This document shows, piece after piece, positions 5,399 to 15,830 of a stretch of DNA of 46,270 nt. The DNA comes from Clostridia bacterium (lineage in GTDB: Bacteria; Bacillota; Clostridia; Lutisporales; Lutisporaceae): positions 1-46,270 of the forward strand of contig DASPIR010000001.1 in the NCBI GenBank assembly GCA_035628995.1, in the 5' to 3' direction. Each line of letters begins with the position of its first letter. Position 1 is the stretch's first letter. Both the position numbers and the translations under genes were made by a program. The notes beneath the pieces were generated by a model. The model was not told the origin of the DNA and made no database searches. It saw only the letters and a list, made by a program, of their open reading frames with translations.

Positions 5399-6691
5399 AT
5401 GGAATATAATAAATTGAATTTTGATGTAGATGACTTATTAAAAAGAAAAACATTTGTAAAAAATCTTATGCAAGTGATAAATGAATGGAATCAACTAAAA
5501 CATGAAAACGATTCTCTTGTTATATCAATAGATGCACCATGGGGTTCAGGAAAAAGCTATCTTCTTAATATGTGGAAGAATTGGTTAATTTCTGAGGAGA
5601 ATTCCGATAAAAAATATGCTGTGACATATTATAATGCATGGGAAAATGATGATAGTGACAATGCGTTTATTCCGCTAGTTTATAAGTTACAGCAAATGGA
5701 TGTATATAAAGAAAATATTTCATTGATAGATAATGTAAAGCAGAGATCTAAAGACTTCCTTAAATCATGTGCTGTGGCCTTGCTGAAAGATGGTATAAAA
5801 AAAGCTATTGGTGAAGAAACAGCAAACTTAATTGGTGAAGGAATTGATGGCGCAACTGAAACAGAAATAGAGAATTTTTTCAAGCAATATAGTAAGTATA
5901 TTGAAGAGAAAGAAAAGTTTAGAAATGCACTTATTGACTTAATACCTGAAAGTGGAAAACTAATCGTTTTCGTTGATGAGCTAGACAGATGCCGTCCTAT
6001 ATTTGCAGTTGAGACATTAGAAATCGTTAAGCACTACTTTAATATTCAAAACATAGTTTTCATTTTTGCAGTTGACTTGAGTCAGTTATCGCATTCAATT
6101 GCAACTATGTATGGAGATGGTATGGATTCAGCAGGTTACCTGAGAAGATTTTTTGATGTAAATATAAATATTCCTTCTGGTGATATAAAACAATACATTA
6201 AGACTATACTAAAAGATTTTGTTGAAAAAATGGGTTATCAAGAAGTCTTTTTTGATATAGTTACTAACGTCTATGTTAAATTGAGGTTGTCACTGAGAGA
6301 TATAGATAAAATTACTAATAATTTCATTGTATTTTGTTTATTCTATAAGCACTTTATCGATGAGAAAATAGCGACGCAGCCAGATAGAGTACTAGAGATA
6401 TTGGAAGTTTATTTATATTTTATGGCTTTAAAGTATAAATATCCAATTATATATAATACAATCTTAAAGCAGGAATTTATAGCATATGACAATGCTCCCC
6501 AAAATTGGGATGTTATCGAAATGAAGTATTTTATATCACCGAATATAAACGAGATGCTAAAGAAAAGTCAAATCGGAGGGGCTCAAAAAAAGGATAAATC
6601 TTTGATTGAAAAATATGGCCTAGATAAGATTAATTCGGATGGATTATCATTTGCTGAACATATTGAGCGGACATTAGAGATGTTTAGTTGA
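5399..6691 (+). CDS. KAP-family P-loop NTPase
   Basis: 430 residues. Walker A is APWGSGKS (about residues 46-53), Walker B is LIVFVDELDR (about 188-197), and these are followed by the KAP-type YLRRFFDVNINIPSG segment. KAP NTPases (named for Kidins220, ARMS and PifA) are signal-transduction or defence ATPases. F-plasmid PifA, which causes phage exclusion, is a member. The typical inserted transmembrane pair is not obvious; residues 120-155 are only moderately hydrophobic. ATG 5399 follows GGAGG. The next gene in the same direction is a HEPN protein, 178 bases downstream, suggesting a two-gene effector system. Low G+C matches the host. The defence role is inferred from family and context. Confidence 0.85.
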   Translation: MEYNKLNFDVDDLLKRKTFVKNLMQVINEWNQLKHENDSLVISIDAPWGSGKSYLLNMWKNWLISEENSDKKYAVTYYNAWENDDSDNAFIPLVYKLQQMDVYKENISLIDNVKQRSKDFLKSCAVALLKDGIKKAIGEETANLIGEGIDGATETEIENFFKQYSKYIEEKEKFRNALIDLIPESGKLIVFVDELDRCRPIFAVETLEIVKHYFNIQNIVFIFAVDLSQLSHSIATMYGDGMDSAGYLRRFFDVNINIPSGDIKQYIKTILKDFVEKMGYQEVFFDIVTNVYVKLRLSLRDIDKITNNFIVFCLFYKHFIDEKIATQPDRVLEILEVYLYFMALKYKYPIIYNTILKQEFIAYDNAPQNWDVIEMKYFISPNINEMLKKSQIGGAQKKDKSLIEKYGLDKINSDGLSFAEHIERTLEMFS

Positions 6692-6758
6692 ATTTAATAT
6701 AATAATGTGTTTGTAGAAACTAGTAATAAAGCGGCATTTTACAGTGTCCATATACCTA

Positions 6759-6815
6759 TTAGGCTAATAATTGGAAGGCTAGGAATTTTCTAGTTATAGC
6801 AATAATGGGAAGTTG
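6759..6815 (+). repeat. Short island repeat upstream of the HEPN gene
   Basis: TAGGCTAATAATTGGA, then GGAATTTT, then TAGTTATAGCAAT, ending AATAATGGGAAGTTGG. The first three blocks recur at the same spacing at 9206-9250 upstream of the SEFIR gene. The last block recurs with small changes near 5345, 8744 and 12630. Confidence 0.65.
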
Positions 6816-6869
6816 GAGCGGTGGTGTAAAATGGGGTAATTGTCAGAATAAAAAGGATGGAGTGTTAGA

Positions 6870-7700
6870 GTGGCAAATTTTGAAGTAAAAATTGAGGGTT
6901 CATTTGAAATATTAACAGATGAAGAATGGAATCGGTACTTAGGAACTACATTGTTTGACAAAATTAAAATTGATCTAAATAAATTTGATAGTTACAAAGA
7001 AAGGATTTTCTTATATCCATTATTAGAGCAGTCCATAAAAGCTCAAAATAATAAGGTAGGATCTATGATAATTACATATGCATTATGCCGACATTATTAT
7101 AATAAAGGTATACCCGATGATCCATGGTATAAATCACCTGGCGATAATGGTGAATCTATCCAGTATATGCCAGAGTTTAAAGAGGAGCATTGGATGAGGA
7201 GGTACTGGTTTAATCATTTTGCTGAAAGTATGTATTTAAAATTCTTTTCGGTATGGGATTGTATTACTGAATTATTAGACATATTTTATGGATTACATAT
7301 TGAACATAATACAGGTTTTAAATTCAATTTACTAAAGTGGCTTAAGAAAAATAAGCCTGATGTTGCCGAATTCTTAGAGGATAATGTTTTCAAGGCACCT
7401 CTTTATATCCAAGCAAGTGATTACAGAAATAACTTTACACATGGGATAGCTCCGAGTGAAATATCAAATGGATTTATATTAAAGAAAGATGAATTAGTAG
7501 ATATTATAAAAAGGGATGCAGACGGAAAACCAATTTTAGACGATCAGCATAGACCTATAACAGAAAAAAAGAAAGCAACAGTATTATCATGTAAAGCAGG
7601 GGATTATACTATTGTAAAAACAATAATGGACAATATTGATAATTTTGCAGTATTTACGGGTGAAAAGATAACAGGTTTGATTAATTTAATTTTGGCATAG
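6870..7700 (+). CDS. HEPN-domain protein, probable RNase (Cthe_2314-like)
   Basis: 276 residues, mostly alpha-helical. R186-NNFT-H191 in DYRNNFTHGIAPSE is an Rx4H motif, the catalytic signature of HEPN RNases, and the surrounding sequence recalls the Cthe_2314-type HEPN group. HEPN proteins cut RNA in toxin-antitoxin, abortive infection and CRISPR-associated systems. The start GTG 6870 follows AAGGATGGAG. It lies downstream of the KAP NTPase in the same orientation, which suggests the ATPase senses or gates and the HEPN cleaves. It is convergent with the recombinase gene (43-base gap). Family assignment is from motif reading only. Confidence 0.72.
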   Translation: MANFEVKIEGSFEILTDEEWNRYLGTTLFDKIKIDLNKFDSYKERIFLYPLLEQSIKAQNNKVGSMIITYALCRHYYNKGIPDDPWYKSPGDNGESIQYMPEFKEEHWMRRYWFNHFAESMYLKFFSVWDCITELLDIFYGLHIEHNTGFKFNLLKWLKKNKPDVAEFLEDNVFKAPLYIQASDYRNNFTHGIAPSEISNGFILKKDELVDIIKRDADGKPILDDQHRPITEKKKATVLSCKAGDYTIVKTIMDNIDNFAVFTGEKITGLINLILA

Positions 7701-7743
7701 ATGTAGTAATAAATTTCCCGCTATGTCTAGAAAACCATCATAT

Positions 7744-8676
7744 TCAATTAAACATCATGGCTAAAGGATTGGCGTTGACAGCTGCCTGTAACTGACCTTC
7801 ATCAACGTGTGTGTAAATCTCAGTTGTCGCAATACTCTCATGTCCGAGAAGTTGTTGCAAGGAACGAATATCTACACGACCATATTTGTACATTAGCGTA
7901 GCTGCAGTATGCCTAAGTTTATGTGTGGACAAACCTTCTGGGGTTATTCCTGCAGCAACGATATGTTTTTTAACTACGTTTTGTATGGCTCTTGTTGTCA
8001 AGCGTCCACCGTTGCGTGATATAAATAAAGCATTCGTATATACAGTCATGGAATTTCGTATAGATTGCCATTTTGCTAATGCTTGTTTGACAGCTGGTGT
8101 CATAAAAATCTTGCGTTCCTTATTACCCTTTCCAATGACTGATAATACATCGGAGTTAACTTGGTCTACATTTAATGATTCTAATTCTGACAAACGTAAA
8201 GCACAGTTTAGAAAAATTGTTATAATACAATTATCACGTACAGAACTTGAACTGGCTTCAATAAGTAGACGAACTGACTCTTCAAGAGTAAGGCATCTGA
8301 CAATACGCTTTGGTTGTTTAGGAGTTTCTAATTCTTCGGCAATGTTATTATCAATCAGATGTGCCTTGGTTTTTAGATACTTCCAAAATTGTCGAATAGA
8401 AACAATTTTTCTTGTTCTCGTGCCAGGAGAAGAATGTAGAGAATCTTGGCAATATGCAAGAAACCCATACATTTCGCCAAGGCTGATAGACCGAATAAAT
8501 TCAATATTCACAAATTGAAAATCTGAATACTCTTGATTTCGGATAATTGAAATGTAACGGAAAAATTGTAAAAGATCTAAGCGGTATTCCAATATGGTGT
8601 TCTTGCTACGACCTTTAATTGTAACAAGGTAAGCCAATTAATGTTCAACTATTTGACAAGATTTATTTGATTGCAT
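7744..8676 (-). pseudogene. XerC-like tyrosine recombinase with in-frame TAA at codon 13
   Basis: The core-binding domain (SKNTILEYRLDLLQFF) and the catalytic domain are complete. The catalytic residues are Arg in CALRLSEL, Lys in IGKGNKERK, HKLRH, LGHESIATTEIYTH and its Tyr. The frame opens with ATG at 8676, 8 bases after a strong AGGAG (8685-8689), but codon 13 is TAA (8638-8640). It is followed directly by TTG and the conserved LAYLVTIKG. The protein would be about 309 residues if intact. It may be a recent nonsense mutant, or be expressed weakly from TTG 8637 (297 residues). It is oriented against the neighbouring genes in the island, as an integron integrase would be, but no IntI-specific insert was recognised. 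Confidence 0.85.
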
Positions 8677-8743
8677 TTTATTCACTCCTTTTCCAAGAGT
8701 GTTGCCACTTATGCATAATATAGACATAAACAGACAAGCGGAA

Positions 8744-8760
8744 TAATGTGAAGTTCTTAA
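8744..8760 (+). repeat. Short island motif upstream of the 81-residue gene
   Basis: AATAATGTGAAGTTCT, 13 of 14 positions identical to the AATAATGGGAAGTT at the end of the repeat before the HEPN gene. It could also be read as a -10-like box, so its role is open. Confidence 0.4.
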
Positions 8761-8842
8761 GGAAGTAGTATTTCTGTGTGGTGTTATAAATAACATTAGT
8801 AATTTATACGGAAATCAAATATTAAAGGAAAGGAAGCAATTT

Positions 8843-9088
8843 ATGAAAGCGATTGTGAGAAAAGTTAATTATAAACGTGGGTTGATTGTATTTGAAAGTG
8901 AAAGTTATGATTGCGGTTGGTTAGAAATTTTGGATACAGTCGACTTAGAGGAAGATGATGAATTGGTAGGAAACTTTAATGAGTTGGGTGGAACAACAAT
9001 AATTAAAAAAAGTACTGGTGAGAAAATAGAAGTCTTTATAGAAGATTATGGGATGTCATATAAAAAAGCAGTTGAAATAATATATTGA
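8843..9088 (+). CDS. Small hypothetical protein, 81 residues
   Basis: Function not recognised. The protein is acidic, begins MKAIVRKVNYKRGLIVFES and has alternating hydrophobic residues that suggest a small beta-barrel, then a short C-terminal helix (MSYKKAVEIIY). There is no signal peptide, membrane span or Cys cluster. The start ATG 8843 follows AAAGGAAAGGAAG. It is divergent from the recombinase and upstream of the SEFIR gene. It could be an accessory cassette gene, an antitoxin-like partner or a recombination cofactor; nothing in the sequence decides. Confidence 0.7.
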   Translation: MKAIVRKVNYKRGLIVFESESYDCGWLEILDTVDLEEDDELVGNFNELGGTTIIKKSTGEKIEVFIEDYGMSYKKAVEIIY

Positions 9089-9111
9089 TGAGGTGTAAAG
9101 ATAATCATGCA

Positions 9112-9147
9112 CAGGGACAAGGGGACAAACCTGTCCCCCTGCCCCTT
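9112..9147. terminator. G+C-rich palindrome after the 81-residue gene
   Basis: GGGGACA (9121-9127) and TGTCCCC (9132-9138) form a perfect stem with an AACC loop, inside a larger near-palindrome of GGGACA/TGCCCC units. A short TTT follows. Similar GGGACA palindromes are scattered in many bacterial genomes. It may act as a terminator or be a REP-like repeat. Confidence 0.55.
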
Positions 9148-9193
9148 TAAGATGGGCTATTTACCAAAATAGTCGATTCTGAATAGAAAAGGT

Positions 9194-9262
9194 TGAGCTT
9201 CTGATAAGGCTAATAATTGGATGTATGGAATTTTTGTAGTTATAGCAATTAGACGAAGTTCA
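9194..9262 (+). repeat. Short island repeat upstream of the SEFIR gene
   Basis: It carries the same blocks as the element at 6759-6815: AAGGCTAATAATTGGAT, GGAATTTTT and TAGTTATAGCAAT in the same order and spacing. Here the element is bounded by a near-perfect inverted repeat, TGAGCTTC (9194-9201) and GAAGTTCA (9255-9262). It ends 27 bases before the SEFIR start. Confidence 0.65.
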
Positions 9263-9289: not shown

Positions 9290-10741
9290 ATGCAGTCTAT
9301 TACGGACCCAAAGGTCTTCATTTCTTATGCATGGGGCACGGATGAATATCAGCAGAAGGTGCTCGACCTCTGTACACGCCTGTATTCTGAGTGCGGTATT
9401 GAGGTGCTCATCGACAAATGGTCGATGGAGGCTGGTAACGATACATACGATTTCATGGAACGCTGCGTAAAAGACCCGAGTGTGAACTACGTCATTATGC
9501 TCCTTGATAAAACCTACGCCGAGAAGGCTGACAACAGGCAGGGCGGCGTGGGAACTGAGACGCAGATCATTTCGCAAGAGGTCTATTCCAATACAGTGCA
9601 GAGCAAATTCATACCGGTTATCTTTGAGCGTGGTCCTGATGAAAAGATATATAAACCGGCGTATTTGAAATCCAGGCTACATTTCGATCTGACGAAGGAC
9701 AACGCCAACGCCGAGTTTATGCGACTGGTCAAACACCTCTACGGCGAGAAGACTTATCCTATGCCGCAAACTAAGGGCACAAAGCCCGACTGGGTATCTC
9801 AGCCGGAAATCGTCCCTGCGGTAATATCCGGCCCGCTGTTTACGATTCAAAATGCAAGCGACGACGTTCTATTAAGGAGCGAGATAAGGAAAGCTCTCAA
9901 TCTGGTAAAAGAGTGCGTTTTTGCGATTGAGCCCACAAGTGAAGAGGAAGCTAAATTTCGAGCCGAACCGCAAGCATATCTCGACTTTCTTGGTACACTC
10001 AGACCTTACCGGGATGCTTTCATCAAGGCGCTTGAGAATATAACGCATAAGGACTATTTCACCGATGTGGCGGCAGATTTTTTCGAAGAATACAGACAAA
10101 CGCAGGATGACCAAAGAGGCTCGGACGACTATCCGTCGCAGGCAAGAAGGGCGCTGCTGCACGAGATGTTCATATATACCATCGCCCTGCTCTGGGGCGC
10201 GGAAGAGTATTCAAAAATCCGCGACCTGATTACTCGCACGTACTTTCTCGGCGGTAAGTACAGAGAAAATAAAGCCGCCAAGTTGACTGACATCGTATAT
10301 GCCGGCGGCCATACCAATCTGATAGAAAACGCTAAGAAGAAGGTCGACAACAAGAACTATTACTCGGGGCTCGCTCAGCACTGGTCAGAGCATGTAATGG
10401 CTGGATACTCGCTCGATCAGGTCACTTTCGCCGACCTTCTCATATACAATCTCAGCGTTCTTGAAGAGCCTGAGGATACTTGGTACTGGTTCCCGATGCT
10501 TTACGTCTACGGCCTGGAGAATCCCATGTTTTCACGATTCGCGATAAGGCTGAAGTCGGCACATCAGCTGAAACGTCTCGCGGGACTTGTTGGCGATGTA
10601 TCGCCTGTTGGCATCGACGAAAGAATTCAGAAAATGGTCAAGCTCTCTGCCATGGACAAGTACAGATACAACAGTTCTTTTGACAAGGCGCCGCTGATCC
10701 TTGACTATGTCAAAGCAGACGAGATCGGTAAACTGCTGTGA
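9290..10741 (+). CDS. SEFIR/TIR-like domain protein
   Basis: 483 residues. The N-terminal SEFIR-type domain (about residues 6-160) opens PKVFISYAWGTDEYQQKVLDL and contains EVLIDKWSMEAGND and the family-typical GVGTETQIISQEV. SEFIR domains are relatives of TIR domains and occur in bacterial immune proteins. A mainly helical C-terminal region (about 190-483) has no recognised fold. ATG 9290 follows GGGGG at moderate distance. G+C is clearly higher than in the flanking genes, with frequent GCC, CTC and CGC codons. The next gene shares this composition and follows after 49 bases, so the two probably moved in together. A role in antiphage defence is inferred. Confidence 0.82.
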   Translation: MQSITDPKVFISYAWGTDEYQQKVLDLCTRLYSECGIEVLIDKWSMEAGNDTYDFMERCVKDPSVNYVIMLLDKTYAEKADNRQGGVGTETQIISQEVYSNTVQSKFIPVIFERGPDEKIYKPAYLKSRLHFDLTKDNANAEFMRLVKHLYGEKTYPMPQTKGTKPDWVSQPEIVPAVISGPLFTIQNASDDVLLRSEIRKALNLVKECVFAIEPTSEEEAKFRAEPQAYLDFLGTLRPYRDAFIKALENITHKDYFTDVAADFFEEYRQTQDDQRGSDDYPSQARRALLHEMFIYTIALLWGAEEYSKIRDLITRTYFLGGKYRENKAAKLTDIVYAGGHTNLIENAKKKVDNKNYYSGLAQHWSEHVMAGYSLDQVTFADLLIYNLSVLEEPEDTWYWFPMLYVYGLENPMFSRFAIRLKSAHQLKRLAGLVGDVSPVGIDERIQKMVKLSAMDKYRYNSSFDKAPLILDYVKADEIGKLL

Positions 10742-10790
10742 GTATTTAGGACTCGCAACAATTATAATAACTTGAAGGCGGGGGTTACTT

Positions 10791-12413
10791 ATGGACGAGC
10801 CAATATATCAAAGACGGATGCTTGAGTACATAAAGCAATACCCTAATACAGGAAGCGTGATGATCCCTATTCATGGCAGGACACGCGCTTACGGAACGGA
10901 CGCATATTTTCAGTGCAGATTGTTTCCGGCGGGGAGAGCCGCTGAAGAAATGGAGATAGATGATACAAACCATTGGAGCGGGACATCTCCCGGTTTCACT
11001 CGTTATGGATTCGGATCTGACGCTGACACCATCTATACCCGCTTCAATAATGAATACGACATGGAGCCGTTTGTGATAGAACGGAGCTTTGACGGTTTAG
11101 GAAAGCGGGACGAGATTGAGATAGTGGAAGAATTCCGGCTCTTGAACAACCTATATTTTGATAGGACGAAAAACGAGTATGTCGATCTTGCGGACGATAC
11201 CACAGTCGTGAAGATCGAGGGGGATTTCGTCACGGTACATAGGAAATATCTCAAGCGGTATCTTGCTGTCAAAGAGATGATTATGCTCATTCATATTGAC
11301 AGCCAGTATCCTCTGGGCGTAGTCGACCCGGATATTAAGACGGGTGGTTATACAGAAAAGACTGAGGATAAAATCTACAGCTTTTACATAGGTGTGGCCC
11401 GCGGCACCAAGCAGCAGACCTTCTCTATGATATATGCCAAAACTGCTATACGAGGCTGTGCAATCGCAGATTGCGGCTACTGGCCGTATGATGAAGATAA
11501 CCGCGATTATGAGGATTATATCATCGGTATCGATGAGGATGGCGATGAAATAGTATTCACTTCCGAACCGTCCAAACTGGCGAACTATTACGGTAAGAAT
11601 CCGGATGCACCGCACTATCTGACGCCTATATTCTTCCGGCGCGAAGTACTGCAGAAATATTACAGCAACCCAGATAGGTATACTGTCGAGGCCGGCATCA
11701 TAAGGTGTGGCACCCGGTGGTTGCTATATATCGATAACGAAAGTCCCGATTATGTTTCAGCTTATCTCGGTGATCTGGGGCGAGATCTCCCTGATAGTAA
11801 TGAACAAAAACATTGGAAGACCTACAACATCGCAATCGACGGAAAACTGAGCAAATCAAAATACAGGAGAGACTTTCTCAGCATACCTACCTCATCTGAC
11901 TCTCCGATATTCATATTTCAGCATAAGTACGAGGAGATAAATAAAGCTTTTGGGGCGAAGGCTGGATGGCCGCTGTTCCTTCCGCTGCATGACGATGACA
12001 AATACACACTTTCCGGACTCAGGATCCCGCTCTTGAACTCACAGTCGGAGTTCGATCAGCAGGTCCTCGCTCTTGTCAAAGTGATGCTCGACTCATTAAA
12101 TGAAAAGCAGATCGAATCGAAACTCCCGCCTTCAGAAGAAAAGATCGTCGGAAGCATCTCAAAGCTGGAAAAGTTGTTTGAAGTACAGGGTCTGAGCGAC
12201 TATGCCGATATAGTGAAGTTTCTCAGAAATGTTCAGGAACTCCGTTCGACCAGCGCGGCGCACAAAAAGGGTCGGAGTTATGATAGGATCGCCAAGGTGT
12301 TCAGTATCGGAGAGGTCTCATATGCCGATGCGTTTATCGGCATTATGAATCAGGCGAATGCTTTTCTGGAGTACATAGAACTAAATATAGACGAGCTCAC
12401 CGCCACGAAATAG
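10791..12413 (+). CDS. Unknown protein with C-terminal Rx5H (HEPN-like) motif, partner of the SEFIR gene
   Basis: 540 residues, no family recognised with confidence. The N-terminal two-thirds is rich in beta-type and aromatic residues (for example SGTSPGFTRYGFGSDADT and RRYLAVK-like segments) and looks like a folded sensor or binding region. The last 120 residues are helical and contain R485-STSAA-H491 within VQELRSTSAAHKKGR, an Rx5H arrangement as in HEPN RNases and ApeA-like proteins. No signal peptide or membrane span. ATG 10791 follows GGCGGGGG. It shares the elevated G+C of the SEFIR gene just upstream. The nuclease idea is an inference from one motif. Confidence 0.65.
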   Translation: MDEPIYQRRMLEYIKQYPNTGSVMIPIHGRTRAYGTDAYFQCRLFPAGRAAEEMEIDDTNHWSGTSPGFTRYGFGSDADTIYTRFNNEYDMEPFVIERSFDGLGKRDEIEIVEEFRLLNNLYFDRTKNEYVDLADDTTVVKIEGDFVTVHRKYLKRYLAVKEMIMLIHIDSQYPLGVVDPDIKTGGYTEKTEDKIYSFYIGVARGTKQQTFSMIYAKTAIRGCAIADCGYWPYDEDNRDYEDYIIGIDEDGDEIVFTSEPSKLANYYGKNPDAPHYLTPIFFRREVLQKYYSNPDRYTVEAGIIRCGTRWLLYIDNESPDYVSAYLGDLGRDLPDSNEQKHWKTYNIAIDGKLSKSKYRRDFLSIPTSSDSPIFIFQHKYEEINKAFGAKAGWPLFLPLHDDDKYTLSGLRIPLLNSQSEFDQQVLALVKVMLDSLNEKQIESKLPPSEEKIVGSISKLEKLFEVQGLSDYADIVKFLRNVQELRSTSAAHKKGRSYDRIAKVFSIGEVSYADAFIGIMNQANAFLEYIELNIDELTATK

Positions 12414-12609
12414 AACCCTGAAACTAAAGCTGCCTTTCGTTTTAGAGCATGGTGCAAACTGGCGGGAGGTGGCGCTGGGGCGCAGGTTCTCTCGTCCGTC
12501 GGCCGCTCCAACAAACAGGAAAAGGGCCTCTGGGATCCATCACGGAATACCAGAAGCCAATTATCGAGCTTCGCTTAATGTTTATAATGTTTATACTAGG
12601 AAAGAGTAC

Positions 12610-12643
12610 TGAACTTCGCCGAAGGCTAATAATAAGAAGTTGA
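12610..12643 (+). repeat. Short island repeat upstream of the GHKL gene
   Basis: A compact form of the island element: TGAACTTC, then AAGGCTAATAAT shared with 9206-9217, then GAAGTTGA. The ends form an 8-base inverted repeat with one mismatch. Confidence 0.5.
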
Positions 12644-12777: not shown

Positions 12778-14547
12778 ATGAGTAAAACAGCTAATTTCAT
12801 TGTTGAGGGTAGATTAACTCAACTATTGGGAGAAAACTATTCATCAGTCGAGCATGCTTTAAAAGAGTTAGTAGATAATGCATGGGATGCTGATGCTGAA
12901 AATGTTCATATCACACTTCCTCGATCAATTGCTGATGCTGAACGTTTTGTTTCTATTAAAGATGATGGCATAGGTATGTCAGAAGAAAGCATTGAAAATG
13001 AATATCTACGAATAGCGCGAGACCGTGTATCTTCAAAGGGTGAAAAAACCGAATTAAAAGATAGACTAGTAAAAGGACGTAAAGGGATTGGCAAGTTTGC
13101 AGGACTTTTGTTGGCTGATCGAATGAGAGTTGTTACAACTCGAAATGGTAAAACAACACAATTTGATATTGTTAAAGGTGATTTTCTTGCGCATCACGAT
13201 AATTTAACATCACAAGATATTAACCTAATAACTTCAGCAAATAAAAATGCCGATAATGGAACAGAAATTATATTAAACGATATTGATATTTTATCAATTG
13301 ATCCAAACTATGATAAACTTAGGCAATTGCTTATTATGGAATATGGACGAGAGGATAACTTTAATATATTTATAAATAACAACTCGATAAAAGTTGAAGA
13401 TATCGGTGGAAAAAACTATAGATTTTCTGAAGCCAATTATGGTATTGACTTGAACTTTAATATAGCAGGAAAAGAGATAAAAAACAAAAAATCAGGCATC
13501 GTATTAAGAGTTAAAGGTAAAATTATTGGTAAGCCCAACTATTGGGGCATTGAAGATGTCAACTATATCCACAGTAAATTGCTGAAGAAAGTATACGGTG
13601 AGGTAAACGCTGACTTTTTAGAGAAACACACGACTAATAGTTGGGGTATTCTGGAAAGTACTGTGGATTATCTAACAGTCGAGGAATTTGTAAGAGAGAA
13701 GCTTCTGTTTGCATTAGAAGATAGTTTTAAGGCATATATTCAATTTACAAAGAAACAGCTTGAGATAGAAATCAAGAAACAGCTTGAAAAATTACCTGAG
13801 TATAAAAGAGAAAAAGCACTTAGGTTAATAGATAAAGTGCTGACGGGCTTGTCTGACGGACGACACAATGAACAACAAATTAAAAATATAATTGCTGTGA
13901 CGATATCGGCCTTAGAAAATGATGACTACTACGACATAATCGAGAGAATAGCGCAAGCAAGTGATGGAAGCATTGAGATTTTCGCAAGTGCTTTAAGAGA
14001 GTTTGGAATACTCGATATCAGTTTAATAGCTAATCAGGCAACAGCAAGATTGAATTTTCTTGAAAAGTTACAATCTTTAGTCGATAATGAGAATACACTT
14101 GAAAAAGACCTACATACTGCTTTGGAAAAGAATATGTGGGTATTTGGTGTAGCATATTCGCTGATGTCGTCAAACCAGACAACTAACCACATTGTAGAAA
14201 AATATTTAGGTGAAAAATTTAAAGGTGGCCGAGCAAACAAAAGACCAGACTTGCTTTTAAACAGTGGTATTGGTGACAAAATGCTATTAATTGAATTCAA
14301 AAAACCGTCTTTGCAGTTAGAAAGAGAACACGAAGCTCAAGCAACGGAATATCGTGATGATTTGCTTTTGTATTTTCCAAACAAAGCAATTGATATACTG
14401 GTAATCGGTAAAAAGGTCAATCCAAAAATTTCTGTACAGCAAACACAGCCTAACCTGAAACTTATGGGCTTTACTGAATTAATATTGAACGCACGAAACG
14501 AGTTGGAGTGGCTGCTTAACAGTCTAGCAACTCCGATAAAAGAGTGA
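12778..14547 (+). CDS. GHKL (HSP90-like) ATPase fused to a PD-(D/E)XK-like domain
   Basis: 589 residues. The N-terminal GHKL ATPase shows the N box ELVDNAWDADA (about 31-41), the G1 box DDGIGM (about 61-66) and the glycine lid GRKGIGKFAG (about 100-109), as in MORC, MutL and HSP90 proteins. A helical middle follows (about 300-440). The C-terminal region has ALEKNMWVFGVAYS, KRPDLLL and LLIEFKKPS, the D...ExK pattern of restriction-like nucleases, similar to Shedu/DUF4263 proteins. It may be an ATP-gated single-gene nuclease defence. ATG 12778 follows TTGGAGGTG. G+C is low again, unlike the SEFIR pair. The fold of the C-terminus is inferred from motifs. Confidence 0.8.
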   Translation: MSKTANFIVEGRLTQLLGENYSSVEHALKELVDNAWDADAENVHITLPRSIADAERFVSIKDDGIGMSEESIENEYLRIARDRVSSKGEKTELKDRLVKGRKGIGKFAGLLLADRMRVVTTRNGKTTQFDIVKGDFLAHHDNLTSQDINLITSANKNADNGTEIILNDIDILSIDPNYDKLRQLLIMEYGREDNFNIFINNNSIKVEDIGGKNYRFSEANYGIDLNFNIAGKEIKNKKSGIVLRVKGKIIGKPNYWGIEDVNYIHSKLLKKVYGEVNADFLEKHTTNSWGILESTVDYLTVEEFVREKLLFALEDSFKAYIQFTKKQLEIEIKKQLEKLPEYKREKALRLIDKVLTGLSDGRHNEQQIKNIIAVTISALENDDYYDIIERIAQASDGSIEIFASALREFGILDISLIANQATARLNFLEKLQSLVDNENTLEKDLHTALEKNMWVFGVAYSLMSSNQTTNHIVEKYLGEKFKGGRANKRPDLLLNSGIGDKMLLIEFKKPSLQLEREHEAQATEYRDDLLLYFPNKAIDILVIGKKVNPKISVQQTQPNLKLMGFTELILNARNELEWLLNSLATPIKE

Positions 14548-15629: not shown

Positions 15630-15667
15630 ACGATGAAAGATAATAATTGCGAACTATCTTTCATCGT
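15630..15667. repeat. 13-bp perfect inverted repeat
   Basis: ACGATGAAAGATA (15630-15642) and TATCTTTCATCGT (15655-15667) are exact complements around a 12-base loop. It lies beside the transposase remnant. There is no T-run, so not an obvious terminator; it could be a protein-binding palindrome or an old element end. Confidence 0.6.
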
Positions 15668-15830
15668 TACATTTGTGAGGTTATTTCCATTATCCAAACT
15701 ATCTGACTCCATTAGTTTTAGCAACTTTTGTTACTATCAATATAATAATTATATATATAAATATTATATTGATTATGAATATGTCTAATCTAAAGTGTAT
15801 TCCGATATAATATTGATAGGGGTGAGGAGT

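What the first reader, a model, noticed from the sequence alone, without database searches (positions are those of the whole stretch)
9290..12413. G+C-shifted SEFIR plus Rx5H protein pair
Two adjacent genes share a G+C content well above all neighbours, so they came from another donor. One has a TIR-related SEFIR domain. The other is a 540-residue unknown ending in a helical domain with RSTSAAH, a HEPN-type motif. A SEFIR-plus-HEPN-like pair would be a new type of immune operon.
Basis: partly seen in the sequence, partly recalled or inferred. Interest (0 to 1): 0.65.

Follow-up and report, generated by a model that had tools for sequence, protein, structure and literature searches.

The report
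Standalone SEFIR and unnamed HEPN neighbours
Two neighbouring bacterial genes, a known type of phage-defence protein (SEFIR) and a member of a widespread but unnamed family with a predicted RNA-cutting (HEPN) end, sit side by side here, but elsewhere each travels alone, so they look like two separate defences acquired together rather than a new two-part immune system.

Summary
Window 9290-12413 (G+C 47.4%) exceeds all 184 windows of the same size sampled from this genome (mean 39.2%). The first gene is a full-length bSEFIR, a known single-gene NAD-depleting defence. The second protein (540 aa) has no hit in Pfam, PADLOC, NCBIfam or PHROGs.

The HEPN guess is supported. In 60 relatives R485 is 60/60 and H491 59/60, spaced Rx4-6H. 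A pLDDT 92-94 model of residues 385-532 has HEPN toxins as its best matches. Unexpectedly, residues 1-224 resemble the C-terminal domain of the phage sensor Avs3 (Z 12.1).

The 'new operon' is not supported. None of 66 loci of the 540-aa family has a SEFIR neighbour, and none of 50 SEFIR loci has the 540-aa gene. The closest relative (68% identical) stands alone after groEL. Relatives sit instead beside type I and ISP restriction genes, CBASS, a gamma-mobile-trio cargo site and inside a P2-like prophage.

Best reading: two independent single-gene abortive-infection modules, possibly co-acquired as one G+C-rich block between palindromic repeats next to a Xer-like recombinase. The HEPN family is undescribed in the libraries held and worth testing; the pairing is ordinary.

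The parts
9290..10741 (+). bSEFIR gene, 483 aa; SEFIR domain residues 7-140, remainder unassigned by Pfam
   Evidence: Pfam SEFIR 1.3e-15 and TIR_2 2.4e-15; PADLOC bSEFIR 4e-79 over residues 3-474; PHROG 11745 3.7e-80; solved relatives 5y8e/5y8f 'Sefir domain protein' 4.5e-31
10791..12413 (+). 540-aa protein of an unnamed family: N-terminal Avs3-CTD-like domain, conserved middle, C-terminal HEPN domain
   Evidence: No Pfam/PADLOC/NCBIfam/PHROG family; 66 loci in genome contigs; AF2 model pLDDT 91.9
10791..11462 (+). N-terminal domain (residues 1-224), fold like the C-terminal domain of Avs3; least conserved part
   Evidence: VIA-align Z 12.1, 162 residues, 3.5 A to 8dgc_B 1853-2076; next unrelated match for this region Z 3.7; mean top-residue frequency 0.40
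11463..11900 (+). middle region (residues 225-370), most conserved part, no fold assigned
   Evidence: 27 residues at 90% or more in 60 sequences, incl. Y290, W310, D328, W342, N346
11943..12386 (+). HEPN domain (residues 385-532)
   Evidence: Top VIA matches 5yep_B Z 7.2, 6m6u_G 7.0, 7bxo_F 6.9, 7ae2_A 6.4, 2hsb 5.8, HepS 9oij 5.5; Foldseek top hit of fragment model is HEPN protein 2hsb, probability 0.82
12243..12263 (+). Rx5H motif RSTSAAH, residues 485-491
   Evidence: R 60/60, H 59/60, spacing x5 in 54, x4 in 4, x6 in 2
10742..10790 (+). 49-nt gap with ribosome-binding-like GGCGGGGG; no promoter- or terminator-like site on the + strand in the gap
   Evidence: co-transcription is inferred, not shown
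9204..9260 (+). imperfect palindromic repeat just upstream of the SEFIR gene; left edge of the G+C-rich block
   Evidence: 79% identical over 57 nt to 6758-6814, only these two clear copies in the genome (E 2.8e-7); folds as hairpin
12597..12640 (+). weak third copy of the repeat, right edge of the G+C-rich block (tentative)
   Evidence: 73% over 44 nt, E 0.01 among intergenic stretches; exact 12-nt core AAGGCTAATAAT shared with 9206-9217

Best explanation
These are two independent single-gene abortive-infection modules lying side by side in a defence island, probably acquired together. (1) The SEFIR gene is a bSEFIR. On infection its SEFIR/TIR-type domain degrades NAD+ (family assignment shown; activity known for the family, inferred here). 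(2) The 540-aa protein is a sensor-effector of an unnamed family. The variable N-terminal domain, with the fold of the Avs3 C-terminal domain, senses a phage component. The conserved middle part couples it to the C-terminal HEPN domain, which dimerises and cuts RNA with the Arg-x4-6-His motif, stopping translation. Shown: domain layout, predicted fold, motif conservation, defence and mobile neighbourhoods, absence of conserved SEFIR linkage. Inferred: RNase activity, trigger, dimerisation, co-acquisition.
For: bSEFIR match over the whole protein. SEFIR is listed as an NAD+-depleting abortive system (PMC12322248, PMC12926258). HEPN: conserved Rx4-6H, the superfamily's conserved motif (PMC3710099); high-confidence models whose best matches are HEPN toxins. 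Linkage absent: 0/66 and 0/50. Two genomes hold both families on different contigs. Defence context of the HEPN family: hsdS immediately upstream, overlapping by 4-26 nt, in four loci, and type ISP/PIN operons in others, against no such family in two or more of 82 distal genes from the same loci. Also next to a CBASS operon, at a gamma-mobile-trio cargo position and inside a P2-like prophage.
Against: No activity test exists. HEPN Z-scores of 6-7 for a helical bundle could by themselves be a common arrangement; the motif carries much of the weight. The Avs3 resemblance is structural only; Avs3 sequences were not obtained for a profile test. Matching codon usage and the short gap would also fit a true operon.
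Confidence: 0.66

Rival explanations
1. The pair is a functional two-gene immune operon: the SEFIR protein depletes NAD+ and the HEPN protein cuts RNA on a shared trigger, or one regulates the other.
For: 49-nt gap, same strand, no terminator-like site on that strand between them; shared unusual G+C and codon usage; the G+C-rich block lies between two repeat copies, as if moved as one unit.
Against: 0 of 66 and 0 of 50 relatives are paired; nearest 540-aa relative (68%) is alone; SEFIR is described as an accessory defence system working on its own (PMC12322248).
Confidence: 0.08
2. The HEPN protein is a guard of restriction systems, like PrrC: held silent by a partner restriction complex and released when phage disables it.
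For: hsdS directly upstream in L016, L025, L026, L068 and the locus behind L003/L032, type ISP enzymes in L024/L033; at least 16 HEPN clades have R-M linkage (PMC3710099).
Against: Most loci, and this window, have no recognised R-M operon adjacent; no ABC ATPase; the N-terminal domain looks like part of a phage sensor.
Confidence: 0.15
3. The HEPN-like domain is not a nuclease but a structural or regulatory helical bundle; the conserved middle region holds the real activity.
For: The middle region is the most conserved part and matches no known family; Z under 8 is weak for a helical bundle (note).
Against: R485 is the only residue invariant in all 60 sequences within residues 343-540, and H491 is 59/60 with variable spacing, as in catalytic HEPN domains; even 280-aa viral short forms keep an R-x4-H.
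Confidence: 0.1

Closest known systems
bSEFIR (PADLOC PDLC03957; Millman et al. 2022, known to me, paper not held)
   Same: Full-length sequence match, SEFIR at the N-terminus, single gene, found on plasmids and in P2-like prophages
   Different: Nothing of note; about 30-34% identity to the nearest relatives sampled in its class
HEPN toxins HepT/SO_3166, AF_0298, HepS, RnlA
   Same: Predicted fold of residues 385-532 and the Rx4-6H motif
   Different: Here fused to about 380 residues of N-terminal and middle domains; no recurrent antitoxin gene seen beside the family
ApeA (N-terminal domain plus HEPN)
   Same: Overall plan: N-terminal domain, C-terminal HEPN, single gene, sometimes in R-M operons
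   Different: No Pfam ApeA match in 60 members and profile comparison gives 0.3-0.5% probability
Avs3 (AVAST type III)
   Same: Residues 1-224 have the fold of the Avs3 C-terminal domain (Z 12.1)
   Different: No STAND ATPase, no Cap4 nuclease; a quarter of the length; HEPN instead of DNase
PrrC / RloC
   Same: HEPN ribonuclease that can lie in type I R-M operons
   Different: No ABC ATPase; R-M linkage only in a subset

Membership tests
bSEFIR | N-terminal SEFIR domain | tested here: met
   Pfam SEFIR 1.3e-15, residues 7-140
bSEFIR | Full-length match to the bSEFIR model | tested here: met
   PADLOC 4e-79, residues 3-474
bSEFIR | Single-gene system | tested here: met
   0 of 50 SEFIR loci carry the 540-aa gene; standalone in a P2-like Klebsiella prophage
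bSEFIR | NAD+ depletion on infection | not testable with these tools
   Reported for the family (PMC12322248)
HEPN superfamily | Rx4-6H motif | tested here: met
   59 of 60 relatives, spacing 4-6
HEPN superfamily | HEPN helical-bundle fold | tested here: met
   pLDDT 92-94; best VIA matches are HEPN proteins, Z up to 7.2; Foldseek top hit HEPN at probability 0.82. Caveat: absolute scores are moderate
HEPN superfamily | RNase activity | not testable with these tools
   Needs an assay
ApeA | ApeA N-terminal and HEPN Pfam models, profile homology | tested here: not met
   No Pfam match in 60 members; hhalign 0.3-0.5%
Avs (AVAST) | STAND NTPase | tested here: not met
   No NTPase family match; 540 aa with N-terminal mixed domain plus HEPN
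Avs3 C-terminal domain | Sequence homology of the N-terminal domain | not tested
   Only the fold was compared; Avs3 sequences were not retrieved. Comparison with Avs4 gave nothing
PrrC / RloC | Fused ABC ATPase | tested here: not met
   No ATPase domain
SEFIR-HEPN operon as a system | Conserved linkage | tested here: not met
   0/66 and 0/50

The most novel reading that the evidence does not exclude
The 540-aa family is a minimal phage-protein sensor: an Avs3-like sensing domain wired directly to a HEPN RNase without a STAND ATPase, so that binding a phage packaging protein switches on RNA cleavage.
Probability: 0.17. Interest if true: 0.75.

Novelty: new variant of a known kind. Interest (0 to 1): 0.48.

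Why it matters
The SEFIR half is already known. The other half is a family found in bacteria of many phyla that no library searched here describes, with a predicted catalytic HEPN domain, an N-terminal domain shaped like part of a known phage sensor, and repeated ties to restriction, CBASS, mobile elements and prophages. If it is a one-gene RNase defence with an Avs3-like sensor, it shows that such a domain can act without the STAND ATPase, which is directly testable with one plasmid and two point mutants.

Tried and rejected
SEFIR-HEPN operon: tested by linkage in both directions, rejected as a conserved system. ApeA membership: Pfam and profile comparison negative. Homology to Avs4 or to the window's own HEPN_Cthe2314 protein: hhalign negative. 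Obtaining Avs3 sequences by guessing NCBIfam accessions failed (NF041812 is a class D beta-lactamase, NF041813 Avs2, NF041814 Avs5, NF041815 Avs4), so the Avs3 link rests on fold only. PDB sequence search with the family profile found nothing meaningful. The viral structure library gave no match. First single-sequence scans of genome contigs and viral contigs for the 540-aa protein found nothing; the alignment-based scans worked. The 2029-aa neighbour in L013 was checked as a possible Avs protein and is DNA polymerase III alpha with inteins. The repeats were considered as integron attC sites; I did not find the GTTRRRY core in them, so they are only called attC-like palindromes. The primary papers on bSEFIR and on the Avs3 structure are not in the held library.

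Full report
Observation. Their G+C (0.488, 0.465) and GC3 (0.589, 0.536) stand out from the direct neighbours (0.30-0.37; GC3 0.23-0.28). The 3124-nt block at 0.474 is higher than all 184 windows of equal size from 14 other contigs of this genome and the rest of this contig (mean 0.392, sd 0.034, max 0.466). Codon usage of the two genes is alike (cosine 0.94). The G+C-rich stretch runs on past the second gene to about 12570. A foreign origin is therefore likely. A common donor is plausible but not proven.

First gene. It is a bSEFIR over its whole length (PADLOC 4e-79, residues 3-474; Pfam SEFIR 1.3e-15; PHROG 11745). The system is described as NAD+-depleting and abortive (PMC12322248, PMC12926258). 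Relatives stand alone, for example in a P2-like Klebsiella prophage between the replication and portal genes and on a Bacillus plasmid. This gene is ordinary.

Second gene. No family in Pfam, PADLOC, NCBIfam or PHROGs matches it, nor do Pfam or PADLOC match any of 60 full-length relatives in a meaningful way. It is nevertheless a real and widespread family: an alignment-based scan of 84,980 species genomes gave 66 loci in Firmicutes, Proteobacteria, Actinobacteria, Cyanobacteria, Chloroflexi, Planctomycetes, Bacteroidetes, Verrucomicrobia, Latescibacteria, Saccharibacteria and others. Only two short peptide patterns were used, so this is a lower bound. Among 391 genomes sampled from its own class only four had it, this one included: sparse and patchy, as mobile genes are.

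Structure. AlphaFold2 with 60 sequences gave pLDDT 91.9; the fragment 228-540 alone gave 94.2. Residues 385-532 match HEPN proteins best in both models (5yep_B Z 7.2, 6m6u 7.0, 7bxo 6.9, 7ae2 6.4, YutE 6.1, 2hsb 5.8, HepS 5.5). Foldseek puts HEPN protein 2hsb first for the fragment with probability 0.82. By themselves such Z-scores are moderate for helical bundles. The motif settles it for me: R485 is invariant in 60 of 60, H491 is present in 59, and the spacing is x4, x5 or x6, which is exactly the superfamily's Rx4-6H (PMC3710099). The most divergent members read RNKLSGH or RNKLAGH. Short viral forms of 280 aa, without the N-terminal domain, read RLWADH.

An unexpected result is that residues 1-224 align to residues 1853-2076 of Avs3 (8dgc_B) with Z 12.1 over 162 residues at 3.5 A, while the next unrelated match for that region has Z 3.7. 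Avs1-Avs4 act after recognising phage terminase, portal or another phage protein, and STAND proteins sense through their C-terminal part (PMC12931631). The N-terminal domain is also the least conserved part of the family (mean top-residue frequency 0.40, against 0.60 for the middle and 0.44 for the HEPN part), as one expects of a sensor. I could not obtain Avs3 sequences, so homology by sequence is untested. What the Avs3 C-terminal domain itself does in terminase binding I could not check in a held paper.

Linkage. With the window SEFIR, a full-length bSEFIR profile and a SEFIR/TIR-domain profile, no SEFIR relative was found in the flanks (up to 9 kb) of the 66 loci of the 540-aa family. Conversely, the family profile found nothing in 50 loci that carry a bSEFIR relative, with 13 kb held on average (eight from the window's class, 37 viral contigs, three from plasmid or phage records, two others). 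The nearest relative of the 540-aa protein (L008, 68% identity) lies alone between groEL and a chromate transporter (families). Its genome does have a bSEFIR, 33% identical to the window's, but on another contig, as does one Latescibacterota genome. Zero of 66 and zero of 50 put an upper bound of roughly 5-6% on pairing (rule of three); contig ends shorten some flanks. The pair is thus a local adjacency.

Context of the 540-aa family. The genes next to it include type I specificity subunits (four, each overlapping by 4-26 nt in the same direction), type ISP enzymes, N6 methylases, HsdR, PIN genes (four, overlapping by 1-4 nt), integrases, AbiEi and HEPN_LA2681. No such family appears in two or more of 82 genes taken over 6.5 kb away in the same loci by the same method. 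On plasmids one relative is the first cargo gene after the gamma-mobile-trio and another precedes a SAVED/nucleotidyltransferase/ThiF/Mov34 CBASS operon. In viral contigs one lies on the opposite strand among genes that look like the baseplate and capsid genes of a P2-like phage (phage genes named from their sequences, not searched). This is the neighbourhood of a defence gene.

Cassette hint. A 57-nt imperfect repeat, 79% identical and forming a hairpin, occurs at 6758-6814 and 9204-9260 and in no other clear copy in the genome. Between the copies lie a HEPN_Cthe2314 gene, a Xer-like recombinase (7744-8637, minus strand) and an 81-codon ORF. A weak third copy (12597-12640; E 0.01, exact 12-nt core) follows the G+C-rich block. 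The two genes may therefore have entered as one unit between recombination sites. This is an inference; I did not find the attC core in these sites.

Mechanism. Most likely the SEFIR protein depletes NAD+ and the 540-aa protein cuts RNA through a HEPN dimer after its N-terminal domain meets a phage component, each on its own (0.66). A true operon (0.08), a restriction guard like PrrC (0.15) and a non-catalytic HEPN-like bundle (0.10) remain possible.

Verdict. The domain reading is right on both proteins. The 'new type of immune operon' is not supported. What is new is the family of the second gene: a HEPN-type defence candidate with its own architecture, distinct from ApeA by profile comparison.

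Noticed in passing
window 4034-34550: About 30 kb lies between the L10 gene (with a probable L7/L12 ORF after it) and rpoB in the rplKAJL-rpoBC cluster, holding a defence island, a two-component system and solute-binding proteins: an unusual split of a conserved cluster.
   Followed up: partly
window 6758-9260: Imperfect palindromic direct repeats flank a block with a HEPN_Cthe2314 gene, a Xer-like tyrosine recombinase and an 81-aa ORF; may be a small mobile element or cassette.
   Followed up: partly
window 12778-14547: 589-aa protein with an N-terminal HSP90/MutL-like ATPase and a weak C-terminal Shedu-like nuclease match, distantly related to BbrUII/HgiDII restriction enzymes; PHROG 6203 covers it.
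   Followed up: no
window 5399-6691: KAP-family P-loop NTPase after an AbrB-like small gene and upstream of the HEPN_Cthe2314 gene.
   Followed up: no
L015, L021, L024, L033: In four loci (Latescibacteria, Chloroflexi) the 540-aa family gene overlaps a downstream PIN-like gene of 136-140 aa; in L024/L033 the upstream neighbours are type ISP-like enzymes: a possible three-part operon.
   Followed up: partly
L214, L215, L217: Viral contigs with a 280-aa short form: middle plus HEPN part only, keeping an R-x4-H.
   Followed up: partly
window 15735-15773 and 15630-15667: Two near-perfect palindromes in the intergenic region downstream of the ATPase gene.
   Followed up: no
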